Assembly: GCA_023665085.1 (NCBI GenBank) | Contig: JAMPEQ010000003.1 | Span: 124,001-188,000, forward strand | Direction of reading: 5' to 3' | DNA length: 64,000 nt | From: Bacteroides sp. | Lineage (GTDB): Bacteria; Bacillota; Clostridia; Oscillospirales; Acutalibacteraceae | Shown: piece after piece, positions 39,566-48,186 of the stretch | Position numbering within the stretch: position 1 is the first letter of the stretch | Layout: the number at the start of each line of letters is the position of its first letter | Made by a program: the position numbers and the translations under genes | The notes under the pieces: model-generated | Seen by the model: only the letters and a program-made list of their open reading frames with translations | The model's database searches: none | What the model was told of the DNA's origin: nothing

Positions 39566-39577
39566 GAGGTGAGCGAT

Positions 39578-40621
39578 ATGGCAAACAAGAAAAACACGAT
39601 TATTAACATTCTTGATATTCTTAAAAGATATACAGATGAAGACCACAGGCTGTCACAAAAGGAAATTGCTGAAATTCTGAAGGATGAATACAATATGACG
39701 ATTGACAGAAAGTCAGTTAAACGCAATTTGTCAAATCTGCTGGAATTTGGTTATCCGATTGAATACAGCGAGTCAATCCGTATGGTGCCGAATAAAAAGA
39801 CAGGCGAGCTTGAGGAAAGCTATATCCTATCTGATTTCTATTTGGACCGTGATTTTTCTGACGCAGAACTCAGGTTGCTCATCGATAGTCTGCTGTTTTC
39901 AAATCATATTCCGTACAGTCAGTGCAAGGAACTGATTGAAAAATTAGAAGGACTTTCAAATAAATACTTTGAATCTAAAGTAAAGCATATCTGCACATTG
40001 CCGCAAAACAGGCCTGCAAATAAACAGTTATTTTACACCATTGATATTCTTGACGAGGCAATCAGCAAGGAACAGCAGGTCTGTTTTCATTATGGTGAAT
40101 ACGGCACAGATAAAAGACTGCATAAACGACAGAACAGCAGCGGCAAGCCAAGGGAATATATCATCAACCCATATCAGATTGTTGCTACAAACGGCAGATA
40201 TTATCTTGTTTGCAATTATGATAAATACGATGATTTGTCAAACTATCGTGTTGACAGAATTATGGATATTAAACTGCTGGACACCCCTGCAAAGCCTAAG
40301 CGTGAAGTCAAAGGTGCAGAGCATGGTTTTGACCTTGCAAAGCATATGAAAGAGCATATCTATATGTTCGCAGGCAAAAGCGTAAGAACAAAGTTTATTG
40401 CAGAAAAATATATCATCGGTGATATTATAGATTATTTCGGTGAGGATGTAATCTTTTCTGATGAAACAGAAGACAAGGTTACAGTAACCGTAACTGTCAA
40501 TGAACGCGATATGCGGTTTTGGGCGTTGCTGTACGCCCTGCAGATTAAAGTTATTGAACCCAAAAGCCTTGTTGATGATATCAAAAGTGATATACAAAAA
40601 GCAGTAGAGCAATATAAGTAA
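39578..40621 (+). CDS. WYL-domain transcriptional regulator
   Basis: The 347-residue protein has an N-terminal winged helix (LSQKEIAEILKDEYNMTIDRKSVKRNLSNLLEFG), a central WYL domain (EYIINPYQIVATNGRYYLVCNYDKYDDLSNYRVDRI) and a C-terminal WCX-type domain. WYL regulators bind nucleic-acid or nucleotide ligands and often control phage defence genes (for example BrxR/CapW-type). The GAGGTGAG site supports this ATG over an upstream GTG. It stands directly before a retron RNA and reverse transcriptase, so it may regulate the retron-nuclease run. Confidence 0.9.
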   Translation: MANKKNTIINILDILKRYTDEDHRLSQKEIAEILKDEYNMTIDRKSVKRNLSNLLEFGYPIEYSESIRMVPNKKTGELEESYILSDFYLDRDFSDAELRLLIDSLLFSNHIPYSQCKELIEKLEGLSNKYFESKVKHICTLPQNRPANKQLFYTIDILDEAISKEQQVCFHYGEYGTDKRLHKRQNSSGKPREYIINPYQIVATNGRYYLVCNYDKYDDLSNYRVDRIMDIKLLDTPAKPKREVKGAEHGFDLAKHMKEHIYMFAGKSVRTKFIAEKYIIGDIIDYFGEDVIFSDETEDKVTVTVTVNERDMRFWALLYALQIKVIEPKSLVDDIKSDIQKAVEQYK

Positions 40622-40622
40622 T

Positions 40623-40801
40623 AAAATACAGCTATGATAGCGATTACCTTAAATGTTTTAAGGTTGGGCAGCGAGTCGCTGTTCATAATATTTTAACTAA
40701 ATACAACAAATAAACAAAAGTTTCGCTGAATAGAAAATTGCTGACACAATTCAGAATTCACCTCAACTTATGTTTTATCGAATGTATCATAGCTGTATTT
40801 T
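40623..40801 (+). ncRNA. Retron non-coding RNA (msr-msd) of the decayed retron
   Basis: The ends form a perfect 17-bp inverted repeat (AAAATACAGCTATGATA at 40623-40639 and its complement at 40785-40801), matching the a1/a2 stem of retrons. Right after a1 comes TAGCGA, the context in which retrons such as Ec86 have their branching guanosine. Then follow an ACCTTAAA/TTTAAGGT hairpin (40646-40664) and a CAGCG-AGT-CGCTG hairpin (40669-40681), both msr-like, and a CTGAAT/ATTCAG hairpin (40726-40754) in the msd position. A reverse transcriptase gene starts 19 bases after a2. The assignment rests on structure and position; no homology search was done. Confidence 0.85.
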
Positions 40802-40819
40802 TTTAGAGGATAATGAATT

Positions 40820-41756
40820 ATGAATGATTTTTCAATTGAAAAAATTTTCGATATGCGTGAAAAAGAAATTTATTATGTTTCTAATAATGTTTCAAAATAC
40901 TATAAAAAATCCTTTATTCCCAAGAAAAACGGGAAAATAAGAACTTTGTATATTCCTGATGAAAAATTGAAATATATGCAAAGAGTGATTCTTAATGAAT
41001 TTTTATTAGAATATAAAATATCAAAAATGTGCAACAGCATATCATAAGGATTCAAATCTTCTATCAAATGCACAGCCTCATCTAAACAAAAAGTTTTTAT
41101 TAAAACTGGATATTAAGGATTTTTTCGGCAGTATCGCTTTTGGTAGAGTGTATAAAATGTTCTCAGCACATTTTCCTGATCAATACGCAAAGCTTTTTGC
41201 TGAATTATGCTGTTACAAAGATAAACTAGTTTAGGGTGCACCAACCTCTCCAGCCATTTCAAATATAATTATGCTGAATTTTGATGATAAAATTGAGAAA
41301 TATTGTTTAAATAACGCTATTTCATATACCAGATATTGTGATGATATAACATTATCATCCAATTCTAACTTAAATGCAGCATATTATAAAATCAAAAAAG
41401 AACTTCAGAAAAACGGATTTGAATTGAACAGCAGAAAAACACATTTTGTTAAATATACTCATCAGCAGAATGTTACCGGCATTGTTGTAAATCAGAAAAT
41501 TCAGGTATCTGCAGATTACAGAAAAACACTAAGGCAAGAACTTTATTATTTGCATAAATTTGGTGCAAGTAATGTCATTTTAAGAAATAACTATATTGAT
41601 TATATAGATGGCGATAGCACACTTGATGAAAAATATGTCAATTATCTTTTAGGCAAAATAAATTATGTGCTGCAAATCAACCCAAATGATGCCACATTTT
41701 TAAAGGAAAAAGAAAAACTTTGTGCTTATAGAAGCAACATGGTTAACGGGAAATAA
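40820..41756 (+). pseudogene. Retron-type reverse transcriptase, decayed
   Basis: An AGAGGA site precedes the ATG. After 71 codons an extra A in the A5 run at 41023-41027 shifts the frame. In the corrected frame the protein reads CATAYHKDSNLLSNAQPH (NAxxH motif), LLKLDIKDFFGSI, then a TAG at 41232-41234 where the family has the Gln of LPQG, followed by GAPTSPAISN, YTRYCDDITLS (YxDD catalytic site), NVTGIVVN (VTG motif) and NYVLQINPNDA. All are retron reverse transcriptase landmarks. Repaired length would be about 310 residues, with no C-terminal extension. With a frameshift and a stop before the catalytic motif it cannot be active. It is a diverged relative of the intact reverse transcriptase 4 kb downstream. 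Confidence 0.9.
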
Positions 41757-41805: not shown

Positions 41806-43284
41806 ATGACACTGAGTAAATCACAATATATAAGAGCACTGCAATGCCCAAAAATGCTTTGGATGGATATGTTTAAGCCTGACAGAGCAGCGGATACAAA
41901 TTTAGATAACATTTTTGAAACAGGTAACGAAGTCGGTGACCTTGCCCGTCAATATTTCGGCAACTACTCTCTTGTTGATTTCAGCTTTAACAAGGAACAA
42001 ATGATTGCCGATACAGAAAAGTTAGTAGATAGCGGTGCAAAGAACATTGCAGAGGCAAGCTTTATGTTTGATAATCTTTTCTGCAGTGTTGATATTCTGC
42101 ACAAAAATCCGTATGGCTGGGATATTATTGAGGTTAAAAGCTCAACACATACCACTGATGTGTATATTAACGATATGGCATTTCAGTATTATGTTTTGCG
42201 TGGTGCAGGGCTGAATATCACAGGCGTTTACAATATGCATATCAACAGTAACTATGTGCGGTACGGCGAGCTTGAACTGGCAAAACTTTTCACGATTGAG
42301 GATTACACTAAAACTGTTTTATCAAGGCAGGGAATGGTTAAATATAATATCGACGGTATCAGAAGATATATGGCAATGGCTGATGATTTTGAGCCCGAAA
42401 AGGATATTGATATTTACTGTGACAGTCCTTATGAATGTGTATATAAAAACTACTGTGGTATGCATTTGCCGACACCATCTGTTTTTGATATTCACGGTCT
42501 TGGCAAAAGGAAAAAGTATGAACTCTATCACAATGATATTGTCAGCTTTGACGATATAATCAACTGTAAACCAAAACTAAGCAAAAAGCAGATGCTGCAG
42601 GTAGAAACGCATTACTATGAATCGGAGCCGATTGTGAATAAAAAGAAAATCAAAGAGTGTATTGATGAATTTACATATCCGCTCTACTTCCTTGATTTTG
42701 AAACCTATCAGCAGGCAGTGCCGAAATATGACGGCATTTCACCATATACGCAAGTGCCTTTTCAGTATTCCCTCCATGCAATACAAAGTAAAGATGCACA
42801 GCTTGAACATTATGAATTTTTAGGTAAAGAGGGAACAGACCCAAGGCGAGCACTTGCCGAACAGCTTTGCAATGACATTCCACTTGATGTCTGCACACTT
42901 GCATACAATATGAAATTTGAAAAAATGGTTATCAAAAATCTGGCTGAAACCTATCCTGATTTATCCGAACACCTGATGAATATTCACGATAGCATCAAGG
43001 ATTTAATGGTGCCGTTTCAGAAGAAATATTATTACAGTGCCGATTTGTATGGCTCATATTCAATCAAATATGTTCTGCCTGCACTCTGTCCTGATGATCC
43101 CGAGCTTAATTATCATAATCTTGATGGAATACATAACGGCAGTGAGGCAATGACAGCCTTTGCAGAGCTTGAATACCATACACCTGAGGAGATTGAAACA
43201 ATCCGTAAAAATCTTCTTGCCTACTGCCGCCTCGACACTCTTGCAATGGTTAAGATTCTTGAGAAGTTGGAAGAAATGTGTTAG
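41806..43284 (+). CDS. DUF2779 protein: Cas4/RecB-like nuclease plus DEDD exonuclease
   Basis: The 492-residue protein has an N-terminal Cas4-like part with C14 and C205, C211, C217 placed to hold an iron-sulfur cluster, the SVDILHKNPYGWDIIEVKSST PD-(D/E)xK core, and a C-terminal DnaQ-like exonuclease with YFLDFET, AYNMKFEK and YCRLDTLAMVKI. This matches DUF2779. The predicted role is single-strand or end-processing nuclease. It lies 49 bases after the decayed reverse transcriptase and 32 bases before the DUF262 gene, so it is probably part of the same run. Whether it was the effector of the decayed retron is inference. Confidence 0.85.
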   Translation: MTLSKSQYIRALQCPKMLWMDMFKPDRAADTNLDNIFETGNEVGDLARQYFGNYSLVDFSFNKEQMIADTEKLVDSGAKNIAEASFMFDNLFCSVDILHKNPYGWDIIEVKSSTHTTDVYINDMAFQYYVLRGAGLNITGVYNMHINSNYVRYGELELAKLFTIEDYTKTVLSRQGMVKYNIDGIRRYMAMADDFEPEKDIDIYCDSPYECVYKNYCGMHLPTPSVFDIHGLGKRKKYELYHNDIVSFDDIINCKPKLSKKQMLQVETHYYESEPIVNKKKIKECIDEFTYPLYFLDFETYQQAVPKYDGISPYTQVPFQYSLHAIQSKDAQLEHYEFLGKEGTDPRRALAEQLCNDIPLDVCTLAYNMKFEKMVIKNLAETYPDLSEHLMNIHDSIKDLMVPFQKKYYYSADLYGSYSIKYVLPALCPDDPELNYHNLDGIHNGSEAMTAFAELEYHTPEEIETIRKNLLAYCRLDTLAMVKILEKLEEMC

Positions 43285-43316: not shown

Positions 43317-45086
43317 ATGAAATTTAACAGCATTAAAACAGAAATTATAAAACTTGAACAACTTTTTTCAAATAAAAAAAGTTATGTTGTCCCTGCTTAT
43401 CAGCGCCCATATGAATGGAGCGATAAGCAAATCGAAAGCTTACTTAACGATATAACAGAATTTTATAATTCAAATAAAGGCACGGAAAATGTATATTTGG
43501 TTAGCACAATGCAACTTACAATTAATGAGAATGGAGAATTGGAAGTTATTGATGGTCATCAAAGAATAACTACATTTTATCTGTTGAAAAAAGCGCTGCA
43601 TAGTACAATTGAATTTAAGTACAGAAATGAAATATATGGATTCAATAAAAGCTTGAATGATTTGGTGAGTGACAAAAACACGTTATACTATAAGAATTTT
43701 GACTATATAAAAAGGTATATCAATAACTTTCTGAACGATGTGAAGACAGATGAAAAATCATTTGTAAAATATCTTGATGAACATATTGTTTTTGCTTCGA
43801 TAACTTTAGCGAATAATTCTCCTATTAAAGATACTCTGCAGGTGTTTAATTCATTGAACACAACAGGATTAAATCTTGATGTTAAGGATATATTCAAAAT
43901 TAAATTTTCTAAATACTTAAATCAAGAAAATGGTTTTGATTGTTTTAATAGAATCAATAAAGCATATTCAGCAGTAATTTCTCCAATAAATAATTTGAAA
44001 GAACCAACTTCATCTGTTTATTGTTTGGAAGAAGATGATTTACTTGACACATATCGTTTTTATCTTATAAGTCAAACAGAAAAAAATTCGTACGCATCGG
44101 ATATGAGAGAAAGCAATGCAGCATTCTTTGAACGATATTTTGAAAATAATGAGAATAAAATAAAACCTGAACTTAATTTAAATACTTTTTGCGATATAGC
44201 TGAATGTATAAACAAAGTCCAAAATTTCATTTATAAAAGAGATCAAGAAACATCTGAAAGTATGAATATTATCTGCTGTTGTGCAAGAAATTTTATTATA
44301 GAAAGTGGTTATTCTAAATTAAAAAATATATATTATTATTTAATATATATACAATATAAAAATAACAAAAAAATTGATAAAGCAGTAGAGACCGCTGATA
44401 AAATAACTGACCTTTTATGGAAATACTGTTCAATCTACAGATTTTTATACTCTAAAATAATAAATCATGTTTTTTTCAAGGTTGGAGAAGCATTATTTAC
44501 AAATCGAAATATTGACAATTTACTTGAAAATGTTTCTTGTATTCTAAAAGATGATATAAGAAATAATAGTTGGAGCAACTTTGATGATTTCAATAAACTC
44601 CTCACTCATGAAGGAAATGTTATAGATTGTAATAAACCCCACTTATTAATAATTCTTAGTTATATAAACGATGCTAATAAAACTAATGTTTTTCAAATAA
44701 AAAAAGATATATTCTATAGGACATACTTTAATTCAGGAAAAAGAAAAAAATGGGATTTGGATATAGAACATATACTTAGCCGTTCATTATATGAAAATAA
44801 AACAGATGTAAATTCTATTGGTAATTTAATGTATCTTTCAAGCAGTATTAATAAAACTCTTGGAGCAAAAACAAAAGAGTTGATTGAAAAAGAAAACAAC
44901 AAGAACAATCGTAGAGAAATAGATTTTCAAAATAAAATTGATGCTTATAATACTGATGCTAAATCGCTTATTTGTGTGAACACCTTTCTTAGCAATTATA
45001 AATATAATATGAAATTTATTGATGATAGAAATGAAAAGAAATGTGAATTTTTAAAAGAGGTTTACAGTGATTTCCTTAGAAAGTAA
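43317..45086 (+). CDS. DUF262-DUF1524 protein (GmrSD/SspE-like type IV restriction candidate)
   Basis: The 589-residue protein has an N-terminal ParB-like DUF262 domain with VPAYQRPYEWSDKQIESLL and a VIDGHQRITTFYLL motif (residues 79-83, DGHQR instead of the usual DGQQR), and a C-terminal HNH-type DUF1524 domain with WDLDIEHIL near residue 483 and IGNLMYLSSSIN. In GmrSD and SspE the first domain hydrolyses nucleotides or senses modified DNA and the second cuts. The His for Gln change in the signature may affect that. It is the last gene of the run that starts with the WYL regulator. Confidence 0.88.
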   Translation: MKFNSIKTEIIKLEQLFSNKKSYVVPAYQRPYEWSDKQIESLLNDITEFYNSNKGTENVYLVSTMQLTINENGELEVIDGHQRITTFYLLKKALHSTIEFKYRNEIYGFNKSLNDLVSDKNTLYYKNFDYIKRYINNFLNDVKTDEKSFVKYLDEHIVFASITLANNSPIKDTLQVFNSLNTTGLNLDVKDIFKIKFSKYLNQENGFDCFNRINKAYSAVISPINNLKEPTSSVYCLEEDDLLDTYRFYLISQTEKNSYASDMRESNAAFFERYFENNENKIKPELNLNTFCDIAECINKVQNFIYKRDQETSESMNIICCCARNFIIESGYSKLKNIYYYLIYIQYKNNKKIDKAVETADKITDLLWKYCSIYRFLYSKIINHVFFKVGEALFTNRNIDNLLENVSCILKDDIRNNSWSNFDDFNKLLTHEGNVIDCNKPHLLIILSYINDANKTNVFQIKKDIFYRTYFNSGKRKKWDLDIEHILSRSLYENKTDVNSIGNLMYLSSSINKTLGAKTKELIEKENNKNNRREIDFQNKIDAYNTDAKSLICVNTFLSNYKYNMKFIDDRNEKKCEFLKEVYSDFLRK

Positions 45087-45091
45087 AATTT

Positions 45092-45208
45092 ATGACTTAT
45101 GTAATATCAGATCTGCATGGTTATCCGATTGAAAAAGTCTTGATTTCAAAGAATTTCATAATTAAATTTTTGCCGCATCGTATGATGTGGCTTTTTTGTG
45201 CCACCTAG
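45092..45208 (+). pseudogene. Remnant of a metallophosphoesterase gene
   Basis: A 38-codon frame begins MTYVISDLHGYPIEK, which is the N-terminus of calcineurin-like phosphoesterases with the D-x-H-G metal motif. After about 15 codons the similarity stops and a terminator hairpin lies within the frame. It is a short fossil next to the retron RNA. Confidence 0.55.
45172..45198 (+). terminator. Terminator after the DUF262 gene
   Basis: GCCGCATC and GATGTGGC form an 8-bp stem (one G-U) with a 4-base loop and a TTTTTT tail. It separates the WYL-DUF262 run from the second retron. Confidence 0.8.
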
Positions 45209-45236: not shown

Positions 45237-45378
45237 GTCGGCGGTAGCAGATTTAAGTAATTTGTAGTTAATTGCTTAAGGCAGGAGCGAGTCGCTGCTG
45301 CTAAATAAAAATAATTATATTTGCGACTCCATTGAAATTTCGTTGAAATTTCACAGCATAACATTAAGTGCCGCCGAC
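45237..45378 (+). ncRNA. Retron non-coding RNA (msr-msd) of the intact retron
   Basis: GTCGGCGGTA (45237-45246) and TGCCGCCGAC (45369-45378) pair as the a1/a2 stem. TAGC follows a1, the expected branch-G context. Next come TTTAAGTAATT/AATTGCTTAAG (45252-45280), then a GCAGGAGCG-AGT-CGCTGCTGC hairpin (45281-45301) whose AGCGAGTCGCT core is identical to the RNA of the decayed retron. TGAAATTTC-GTT-GAAATTTCA (45333-45353) is a perfect hairpin in the msd place. The reverse transcriptase start lies just behind a2. Length, order and shared core all fit a retron RNA. Confidence 0.88.
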
Positions 45379-45388
45379 ACCTTTCATT

Positions 45389-46966
45389 ATGATTAATAAC
45401 AAAGATGAATTTTCACTTGATGCAAATGAAATAGGCTTTATTGATGAAATTGGTGGAGTTAAAGAATTGTTATCTTTTATTAATTTAAAGAAATCCAATT
45501 TTGACTCTCTGTATCAACTCATATCAATTTTATTCCCGAAAATAAAAGACATTCATGAAAAAGAATATGAAATAAATGTGCTGTATTATTTAACACACAA
45601 TATAAATGAAGCTTACCAAACTGCATATGTAACCAAGTCTAACGGCAAAAAAAGAGAGATAAACAAACCCGATTTACTTATAAAAAAATATCAAAAAGCC
45701 ATATATAAAAACATATTAGCCAAAATTCCTGTATCGACTTATGCAACAGCATATCAAAAAGGTTCTTCTTTAAGATATTCCACTGCTGTTCATACAGGCA
45801 AGCCTATGATTTTAAAACTTGATATAAAAAATTTTTTCGGTAGCATTCTATACAAATTCGTGCAGGCAATGTTTATAAATCAAGGCTATGATTATTTTAT
45901 TTCAACAACGCTTGCAACACTGTGCTGTTATAAAGGACGGCTGCCACAGGGTGCATCAACTTCACCTGCTATTTCAAATATTATAATGCGTGGATTTGAT
46001 GAAATAGTTGCAGAATTTTGCAGAGAAAGAAATATTGTATACACACGATACAGTGATGATATGACCTTTTCAGGTGAATTTGATAAGGCTGAAATTATAG
46101 ACTTTGTTGAAATCAATCTGAACAAATCAGGTTTTAGATTAAATAAAAAGAAAACCAAGCTGATTAAGCAAGGTCAAAGGCAAACTGTAACAGGTGTTGT
46201 TGTAAATGAAAAACAGCAATTGCCTAAAGGTTATAGAAAAAAGATCAGGCAGGAGGTATATTACTGTCAAAAGTATTCTGTTAAATCTCATATACTGCAT
46301 GCAAATCTAACTGAGTATATTCGTCCGAATGGTGATGTTTATTACAAGGAGTATCTGCTGAATTTATATGGCAGAATAAACTATGCTCTGCAGATTAATC
46401 CGAGTGATACTGAAATGCTTAATTACAGTGTCAATGTAAAATCTGCAATGTGTCAGCTTGATATCGTTAAACGAAAAATTAATGATGAAATATTTAATTT
46501 AGATGCAGAATTTTATCAAAACGAAAATAGAGAAGATAATGACATCTATTCTTATTTGATACAATTAGGTTATACGAATGAAGAAATTGATTACAGTGGT
46601 ATAGCACAGCAACCGGAATATAAATATTATCCGGTGTACGATGATAAAGCTAATATCATAGGGTTGCTGTATTTTAATTGTAATATAATCAATAAAAATT
46701 ATGATACATTCTTCGGCTTCAGTTTTGATAAAAGTGTAAAGTGTATTATATTAACTTTGGAAAAAGAATTTGTATTTAGAGCTAAAAAGATCGGGCTGAA
46801 AAATGTTGTATCATTTTTGGCTGAGCCAAGCAATTTTGTTCTCACGCAAAGCAAACTTGATTTTATCAGGGCGTACGGAAACACAGTTGTTCTTCATGGA
46901 GAGAAGGGTGAGATATTTGAGCGAATCAGACAAATTTTAACAAGCAGAAATGTAATAGTATTATAA
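45389..46966 (+). CDS. Retron reverse transcriptase with C-terminal extension
   Basis: The 525-residue protein has the reverse transcriptase core with DIKNFFGSI (145-152), LPQGASTSPAISN (185-197), the catalytic YTRYSDDMTFSG (Y221-S-D-D224) and the retron VTG motif (267-269); the NAxxH motif reads STAVH (131-135). Retron enzymes usually end near residue 320-340. Here about 180 further residues follow, beginning with a charged helix (KRKINDEIFNLDAEF) and continuing as an alternating strand-helix domain (KYYPVYDDKANIIGLLYFNC ... CIILTLEKEFVFRAKKIGLKNVV ... IRQILTSRNVIVL). That part is not recognised and may be a fused effector. A GTG seven codons upstream overlaps the a2 repeat and was not chosen. 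No other effector gene is co-oriented downstream. Confidence 0.9.
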   Translation: MINNKDEFSLDANEIGFIDEIGGVKELLSFINLKKSNFDSLYQLISILFPKIKDIHEKEYEINVLYYLTHNINEAYQTAYVTKSNGKKREINKPDLLIKKYQKAIYKNILAKIPVSTYATAYQKGSSLRYSTAVHTGKPMILKLDIKNFFGSILYKFVQAMFINQGYDYFISTTLATLCCYKGRLPQGASTSPAISNIIMRGFDEIVAEFCRERNIVYTRYSDDMTFSGEFDKAEIIDFVEINLNKSGFRLNKKKTKLIKQGQRQTVTGVVVNEKQQLPKGYRKKIRQEVYYCQKYSVKSHILHANLTEYIRPNGDVYYKEYLLNLYGRINYALQINPSDTEMLNYSVNVKSAMCQLDIVKRKINDEIFNLDAEFYQNENREDNDIYSYLIQLGYTNEEIDYSGIAQQPEYKYYPVYDDKANIIGLLYFNCNIINKNYDTFFGFSFDKSVKCIILTLEKEFVFRAKKIGLKNVVSFLAEPSNFVLTQSKLDFIRAYGNTVVLHGEKGEIFERIRQILTSRNVIVL

Positions 46967-47007: not shown

Positions 47008-47448
47008 TTATTCAGTTTTAAAGGCATTTAGTGTTTTACGATAGCAAAGCATATTGGGGAAATACATTTTGCTATTGAGTATAATTGAATTATCTTGCCC
47101 CAAGCCTTCAAGTATACCTGCTGCAACGCCTGCACTGCGGGACATTCCCATATCACAATGCACCCATATTGTATCAACTCTGTCTTTCCATTTCAGTACA
47201 AAATCTCTGATTTTAACAGCGTCATCATCAGTCATTGCAGGATATCCTTTAAAAATATCCTGCGTTTCGGTGCTTACATCATAAAAGGATAGATAAAGAA
47301 TATCTTTAATCGTGCTGTTGCCTGAATTAAATTCAGCCTTTTCATCACCGGGTGTGCGGATAGAAATAATTACTTTATCATCTGAGCAATCAGTATAACT
47401 TAACCGTTTAGCTTTAGATTTATTAAGGATAACAAATTTCATACTCAT
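47008..47448 (-). CDS. Protein tyrosine/dual-specificity phosphatase-like protein 1
   Basis: The 146-residue protein has the phosphatase P-loop HCDMGMSRSAG with C98 and R104 (CX5R), preceded by a strand (VDTIWV) and followed by a helix, as in small dual-specificity phosphatases. An Asp-rich loop around YDVSTETQD could give the general acid. The first part of the gene overlaps the end of the DnaB-like gene by 26 bases. Two in-frame ATGs are close together and neither has a strong ribosome binding site, so coupling to the upstream gene is likely. A second CX5R protein is two genes upstream. Confidence 0.8.
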   Translation of the reverse strand: MSMKFVILNKSKAKRLSYTDCSDDKVIISIRTPGDEKAEFNSGNSTIKDILYLSFYDVSTETQDIFKGYPAMTDDDAVKIRDFVLKWKDRVDTIWVHCDMGMSRSAGVAAGILEGLGQDNSIILNSKMYFPNMLCYRKTLNAFKTE

Positions 47449-48186
47449 CAATAATTAAATTATTTTTGTCTGTAAAACGAATTGCTTCACGATCAAATTC
47501 CAATTCAATAGTACCTATATCTCCATGACAGTTTTTTGCAATAATCAATTCTGTATTATTAATATCATCTTCGTCAATTGAATCAAAATAATACGAATCC
47601 CTATAAAGAAACATAATTATATTTGCATCTTGTATTAAACTATATAAACCAAAAAAGATGAAAGTGTAGGTCGGTGTTTATCCACATCAACCTGCCTTGG
47701 TAAGCTTGTAGTGCAGATAACAGGAATATTAAGTTCTTTTACCATTCTTTTAAGATCTCTTGAAATGTCATGGCCTTCCTGCATTCTGGCAGTCCTTTTT
47801 ATTTCCGGTGTAATCAATCCAAAATCATCTATAATTACACAATCTACATATTTTAAATTTACTACTTTTTGTTTCATTTCTGATACTTTTATTACGGGTT
47901 GGTCTTCAATATAAATTTCTATATCAGAATTAATTGTTGAGAATTTTTTTGCAAGATGTTCAGCAGATAAGTCTAAACTGAAAAAAACACATTTCTTTCC
48001 TGTTGCTGCTATGTTTTCTGCAAGATTAGCTGCAAAGGTTGTTTTGCCCATTGCAGGTCTGGCACCAATGTAAATCAAATCCGATTTTCTAAAACCTTGT
48101 GTAAGCTTATCAAGCTGCTTAAATCCTGTTGAAATGGATTCTTTCTCTTCCGTTTTGTTTTCAATAATATCTATAAGTTTTTTCAT
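47423..48186 (-). pseudogene. DnaB-like ATPase (RecA fold), frameshifted
   Basis: The first 180 codons match the ATPase domain of replicative helicase DnaB: STGFKQLDKLTQGFRKSDL, Walker A GARPAMGKTT (41-50), Walker B VDCVIIDD (114-121) and TTSLPRQVDVDKHRPTLS. The frame then ends because the T6 run (plus-strand A6 at 47651-47656) is one base short. In the other frame the protein goes on as GLYSLIQDANIIMFLYRDSYYFDSI and a typical DnaB C-terminus (ELIIAKNCHGDIGTIELEF). The N-terminal DnaB domain is absent, so even repaired (about 254 residues) it is a stand-alone RecA-fold ATPase and not a normal helicase. Confidence 0.85.

What the first reader, a model, noticed from the sequence alone, without database searches (positions are those of the whole stretch)
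40623..41756. Second, decayed retron with a perfect 17-bp a1/a2 stem still present
Seen: AAAATACAGCTATGATA and its exact complement 162 bases apart, TAGCGA after a1, msr-like hairpins, and a reverse transcriptase broken by an A-run insertion and a TAG just before the catalytic motif. The RNA structure is better preserved than the enzyme, which suggests recent loss or use of the RNA by the other reverse transcriptase.
Basis: partly seen in the sequence, partly recalled or inferred. Interest (0 to 1): 0.76.

Follow-up and report, generated by a model that had tools for sequence, protein, structure and literature searches.

The report
Recently broken retron, RNA still intact
This is a bacterial retron (an RNA plus a reverse transcriptase that copies it into DNA) whose enzyme was knocked out very recently by two mutations while its RNA still looks intact; it is a genuine but fairly ordinary pseudogene, interesting mainly because a second, working, distantly related retron sits 4 kb away and might or might not use the left-over RNA.

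Summary
AAAATACAGCTATGATA (40623-40639) and its exact complement (40785-40801) flank a retron msr-msd RNA. The reverse transcriptase (RT) behind it is broken by one extra A in an A-run (41023-41027) and a TAG (41232-41234) in place of the invariant Q of QGxPTSP. It is an Ec107-like (Eco5-type) solo retron: no conserved accessory gene. It sits between a WYL gene and a DUF2779 gene that lie 1-3 nt apart in three relatives, so it was probably inserted there. Outside the amber, the broken RT keeps all 30 other invariant residues, so the enzyme died very recently. That recency alone explains the well-preserved RNA. In 80 genus and 398 family genomes I found no clear case of the RNA persisting without an RT. 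Use by the neighbouring RT (532 aa, 38% identical) is possible because the invariant GCGAGTCGC msr hairpin is shared, but it is unsupported. Best reading: a freshly pseudogenised retron. New member of a known kind; moderate-low interest.

The parts
39569..40621 (+). WYL-domain regulator gene immediately upstream; stop codon one base before a1; left flank of the insertion
   Evidence: Pfam WYL E=4e-13; directly followed by DUF2779 in G030, G002, G061
40623..40639 (+). a1 arm of the retron RNA
   Evidence: perfect 17-bp complement to 40785-40801; compensatory changes in orthologues
40640..40640 (+). putative branching (2'-OH priming) guanosine, in (T/C)AG
   Evidence: AG invariant in all 32 aligned relatives; priming role inferred from known retrons, not tested
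40646..40664 (+). msr hairpin 1 (ACCTTAAA-TGT-TTTAAGGT)
   Evidence: folds; 3 of 8 pairs changed on both sides in orthologues
40665..40685 (+). msr hairpin 2 (TGGGCAGCG-AGT-CGCTGTTCA) with the clade-wide GCGAGTCGC core
   Evidence: core conserved in nearly all loci; outer stem covaries
40712..40775 (+). msd-type long hairpin (template for msDNA); exact msDNA end unknown
   Evidence: fold, similar hairpins in L004-L006
40785..40801 (+). a2 arm of the retron RNA
40820..41756 (+). broken retron reverse transcriptase (Ec107-like); region X NAQPH, YCDD and VTG all present
   Evidence: PADLOC RT_Ec107-like E=8e-15 (N piece) and 6e-50 (C piece); tree with L004-L006 at 100/98
41023..41027 (+). A-run with one extra A: frameshift; first frame ends at 41047
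41232..41234 (+). TAG in place of the invariant Q of QGxPTSP
   Evidence: TAG is also the stop of the intact neighbour ending at 43284
41806..43284 (+). DUF2779 gene; right flank of the insertion
   Evidence: Pfam DUF2779 E=9e-45; adjacent to WYL in relatives
45237..45378 (+). RNA of the second, intact retron (a1 GTCGGCGGTA / a2 TGCCGCCGAC); not part of the broken one
45368..46966 (+). intact retron RT with C-terminal extension (532 aa); candidate cross-user of the orphan RNA
   Evidence: PADLOC RT_Ec107-like E=9e-111; groups with L007 at 100/97 in the tree

Best explanation
A solo (RT + ncRNA, no partner gene) Ec107-like retron was inserted between a WYL gene and a DUF2779 gene of a defence island in a Eubacterium-like Clostridia bacterium. 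It would have worked as a normal retron: the RNA folds with a1/a2 paired, the RT binds the msr hairpins, primes on the 2'-OH of the G just after a1 and copies the msd into msDNA (inferred from known retrons). The RT gene then suffered an A-insertion frameshift and an amber mutation and makes no full enzyme. The RNA is intact because too little time has passed. Shown here: structure, covariation, orthology, lesions, site context. Inferred: mechanism, order of the lesions, absence of function.
For: Covariation with intact orthologues: 15 of 41 pairs changed on both sides, 95% of cells paired against 30-48% for slid controls, 0/500 shuffles. Independent model hit E=6e-9. RT groups with L004-L006 at 100/98 and its branch is no longer than theirs. 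30 of 31 fully invariant residues kept, the only loss being the amber. Empty site in three relatives: WYL stop and DUF2779 start 1-3 nt apart, against 1184 nt here. No conserved neighbour gene across about 44 loci. All but one of the other RTs examined have an open frame. Neighbouring genes have intact frames, so local sequence quality looks good.
Against: Only one genome of the species is held, so the lesions cannot be checked against reads or other strains; one or both could be assembly errors or strain-specific. A second RT with a frameshift in an A-run (L099, G246) could hint at slippage, or at errors in runs.
Confidence: 0.82

Rival explanations
1. The left-over RNA is reverse-transcribed in trans by the intact RT of the neighbouring retron (45368-46966), so one RT makes two msDNAs.
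For: Both RNAs share the (T/C)AG priming context and the GCGAGTCGC hairpin; msr identity is 60% against a 48% shuffle mean and 58% shuffle maximum, the low end of the two known cross-using pairs (about 60 and 75% msr identity, PMC6868368). They lie 4.4 kb apart on the same strand.
Against: Region Y, which directs msr choice in Eco1/Eco3 (PMC6868368), is 38% identical between the two RTs. Hairpin 1 and the msd differ. The RT falls in another clade. No clear orphan RNA was found in 398 family genomes.
Confidence: 0.08
2. The RT is still made, through suppression of the amber and frameshifting or transcriptional slippage at the A-run.
For: All other conserved residues are intact; another RT (L099) also breaks at an A-run.
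Against: Two events would both be needed; the run has only 5 A; TAG is used as a normal stop next door (43284); no orthologue has either feature.
Confidence: 0.03
3. One or both lesions are sequencing or assembly errors and the retron is intact.
For: Decay is otherwise undetectable; only one assembly is available.
Against: Two independent lesions of different kinds in one gene while the long neighbouring genes are intact; a single substitution inside unique sequence is not a typical assembly error.
Confidence: 0.07

Closest known systems
Retron-Eco5 (Ec107) / PADLOC RT_Ec107-like
   Same: Best profile hit for both RT pieces and all three orthologues; YCDD core as in RT-Eco5, NAXXH region X and VTG region Y as described for retrons (PMC6868368); no conserved accessory gene; inserted between genes without a mobile element in sight.
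   Different: Host is a Clostridia-type bacterium, not E. coli; no Rfam match for the RNA; the RT is broken. The Ec107 RNA itself was not compared.
Type III-A retrons (phosphoribosyltransferase + winged-helix + RT)
   Same: Second-best RT profiles; plasmid examples 35-40% identical.
   Different: No phosphoribosyltransferase or winged-helix gene here or in the orthologues; the full GCGAGTCGC hairpin is absent from the three examples read.
RT-less msr-msd repeats of Retron-Nex1 (Ne160)
   Same: Retron RNA without a working RT beside it (PMC6868368).
   Different: There the RNA is duplicated and no RT lies within a kilobase; here there is a single copy next to its own recently broken RT.

Membership tests
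Retron | RNA bracketed by an a1/a2 inverted repeat with msr hairpins and an msd hairpin upstream of the RT | tested here: met
Retron | RT with region X (NAXXH), YxDD and region Y (VTG) | tested here: met
   NAQPH, YCDD, VTG in the pieces; motif definitions PMC6868368
Retron | Intact RT reading frame | tested here: not met
   frameshift at 41023-41027 and TAG at 41232; hence a retron pseudogene, not a working retron
Retron | Production of branched msDNA | not testable with these tools
   needs nucleic-acid extraction
Ec107-like retron | RT falls in the Ec107-like profile | tested here: met
   PDLC03739 is best for both pieces and the orthologues
Ec107-like retron | No accessory/effector gene | tested here: met
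   no neighbour family shared by more than 3 of about 44 loci within about 1.5 kb
Ec107-like retron | RNA similar to that of Ec107 | not tested
   no Ec107 record was fetched
Type III-A retron | Phosphoribosyltransferase and winged-helix partner genes | tested here: not met
   absent at the window and around L004-L006

The most novel reading that the evidence does not exclude
The orphan RNA is kept as a second substrate of the neighbouring 532-aa RT, so one retron enzyme serves two msDNAs (two sensors) in a defence island.
Probability: 0.08. Interest if true: 0.75.

Novelty: new member of a known kind. Interest (0 to 1): 0.34.

Why it matters
It is a clean example of a retron caught just after loss of its enzyme, with intact relatives, an empty site and a second retron in the same island. 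It gives a concrete test of whether a retron RT can adopt a foreign RNA. The relatives also define a widespread Clostridia-type retron RNA with an invariant GCGAGTCGC msr hairpin that Rfam does not hold, and a set of solo retrons with no partner gene, whose function remains open.

Tried and rejected
Rfam at gathering thresholds: no match anywhere in the window, so no help with naming the RNA. Profile scan of genome contigs and viral contigs: only the three genus orthologues and two distant viral hits. Exact DNA patterns from the RNA and the amber region in viral contigs, and the island in plasmids: nothing. A partner gene for the solo retron: none found. Programmed frameshift or amber suppression: rejected, since no orthologue has either and TAG is a normal stop next door. 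Promoter scan: promoter-like counts equal to shuffles, uninformative. RNA hits without a strong RT hit in the family search (five genomes): one at a contig end (L092), one with a frameshifted RT (L099), two with diverged RTs (L104, L105), one weak hit with no RT and no motif, probably false (L103).

Full report
What is there. The perfect 17-bp inverted repeat 40623-40639 / 40785-40801 is the strongest inverted repeat of the region. By itself it is unlikely by chance: in 34% GC DNA I expect of the order of 0.004 such repeats within 200 nt per 64-kb window (own arithmetic from the base composition). The whole RNA folds far better than shuffles (z = -6.4): a1/a2 stem, two msr hairpins, one long msd-type hairpin.

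The enzyme. The reading frame from 40820 is a retron RT (PADLOC RT_Ec107-like best for both pieces), with NAQPH (region X), YCDD and VTG (region Y), features defined in PMC6868368. One extra A in the run 41023-41027 shifts the frame, and TAG at 41232-41234 replaces the Q of QGxPTSP. The adjacent DUF2779 gene ends in TAG at 43284, so TAG is a stop in this organism.

Orthologues. Three genomes of the same genus hold intact RTs, 51-55% identical over the aligned pieces; named records of this group are Eubacterium-like MAGs. Each carries the same RNA upstream, and the arms differ by compensatory changes (GCGGCGGTGATA, CAGCGGTGATA, AGTGGTGATA against CAGCTATGATA). On the four-sequence alignment 41 pairs are 95% paired, 15 have changes on both sides, 0/500 shuffles reach this, and slid controls drop to 30-48%. 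The four RTs form one clade at 100/98.

A wider RNA family. Nearly all of about 44 related RT loci in the order carry an msr hairpin with a GCGAGTCGC core and a covarying outer stem. A model built from 32 of them, leaving out both window RNAs, finds the window's orphan RNA (41.6 bits, E = 6e-9) and the RNA of the neighbouring retron (22.4 bits, E = 5e-4). Rfam has no matching family at its thresholds.

How recent. At the 31 columns invariant in all intact RTs compared, the broken RT differs at one only, the amber, and its branch in the tree is not lengthened. Thirty kept codons offer about 69 nonsynonymous sites, so the 95% upper bound on divergence since the enzyme died is about 4%. At that bound the 34-nt stem would have about 1.5 changes and a chance of about 0.2 of none; at smaller divergence the chance is higher (own arithmetic). 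The perfect stem is thus no evidence that the RNA is still under selection.

Where it sits. In G030, G002 and G061 the WYL stop and the DUF2779 start are 1-3 nt apart; in the window 1184 nt holding the retron lie between them. The simplest reading is insertion of an RT-RNA cassette. No target duplication is evident by eye in this AT-rich sequence. In G061 the orthologous retron RNA lies about 1.3 kb downstream of the same WYL-DUF2779 pair, so the island may be a repeated landing place. No partner gene is conserved around the retrons, as reported for Ec107, which lies in an intergenic region without mobile element (PMC6868368).

Could the neighbour use the RNA? The intact RT 45368-46966 belongs to another clade, 38% identical both before and within region Y. 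Its RNA shares the priming context and hairpin 2 but not hairpin 1 or the msd; msr identity is 60%, shuffle mean 48%, maximum 58%. The 2019 review knew cross-use for two pairs only, with about 60 and 75% msr identity (PMC6868368). So it is possible but unsupported. Against a free-living RNA: in 80 genus and 398 family genomes the RNA model hits coincide with RTs (intact, diverged or frameshifted), apart from one locus cut by a contig end and one weak, probably false hit. These large searches use stricter filters and may miss weak RNAs; the window's own second RNA was not listed.

Verdict. A real retron pseudogene, freshly broken, of the Ec107-like solo kind.

Noticed in passing
L099 (G246), 286-1388, - strand: Another Ec107-like retron with an intact-looking RNA whose RT frame is broken at a run of seven A; possibly decay, slippage or an error.
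   Followed up: partly
window 45091-45140: Remnant of a metallophosphatase start (MTYVISDLHGYPIEKV) just upstream of the second retron; a full copy follows the orthologous retron in L005 (1978-2688), next to a dual-specificity-phosphatase-like gene whose relative lies at window 47008-47451.
   Followed up: partly
window 45368-46966: Intact Ec107-like RT with a C-terminal extension of about 170 residues without a Pfam match; L007 (G020) has a similar 542-aa RT.
   Followed up: no
loci L004-L056: Solo retrons across the order share an invariant GCGAGTCGC msr hairpin; the RNA is absent from Rfam at gathering thresholds and no partner gene is conserved.
   Followed up: partly
window 39569-40621 and L065-L073: The WYL gene is followed by different genes in different relatives (DUF2779, other genes, retron), suggesting a regulator with exchangeable downstream genes.
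   Followed up: partly
window 43317-45086: GmrSD/DUF262-type gene (PADLOC HEC-06, Orf5, SspE profiles) between the two retrons; no match in nine genomes of the genus searched.
   Followed up: partly
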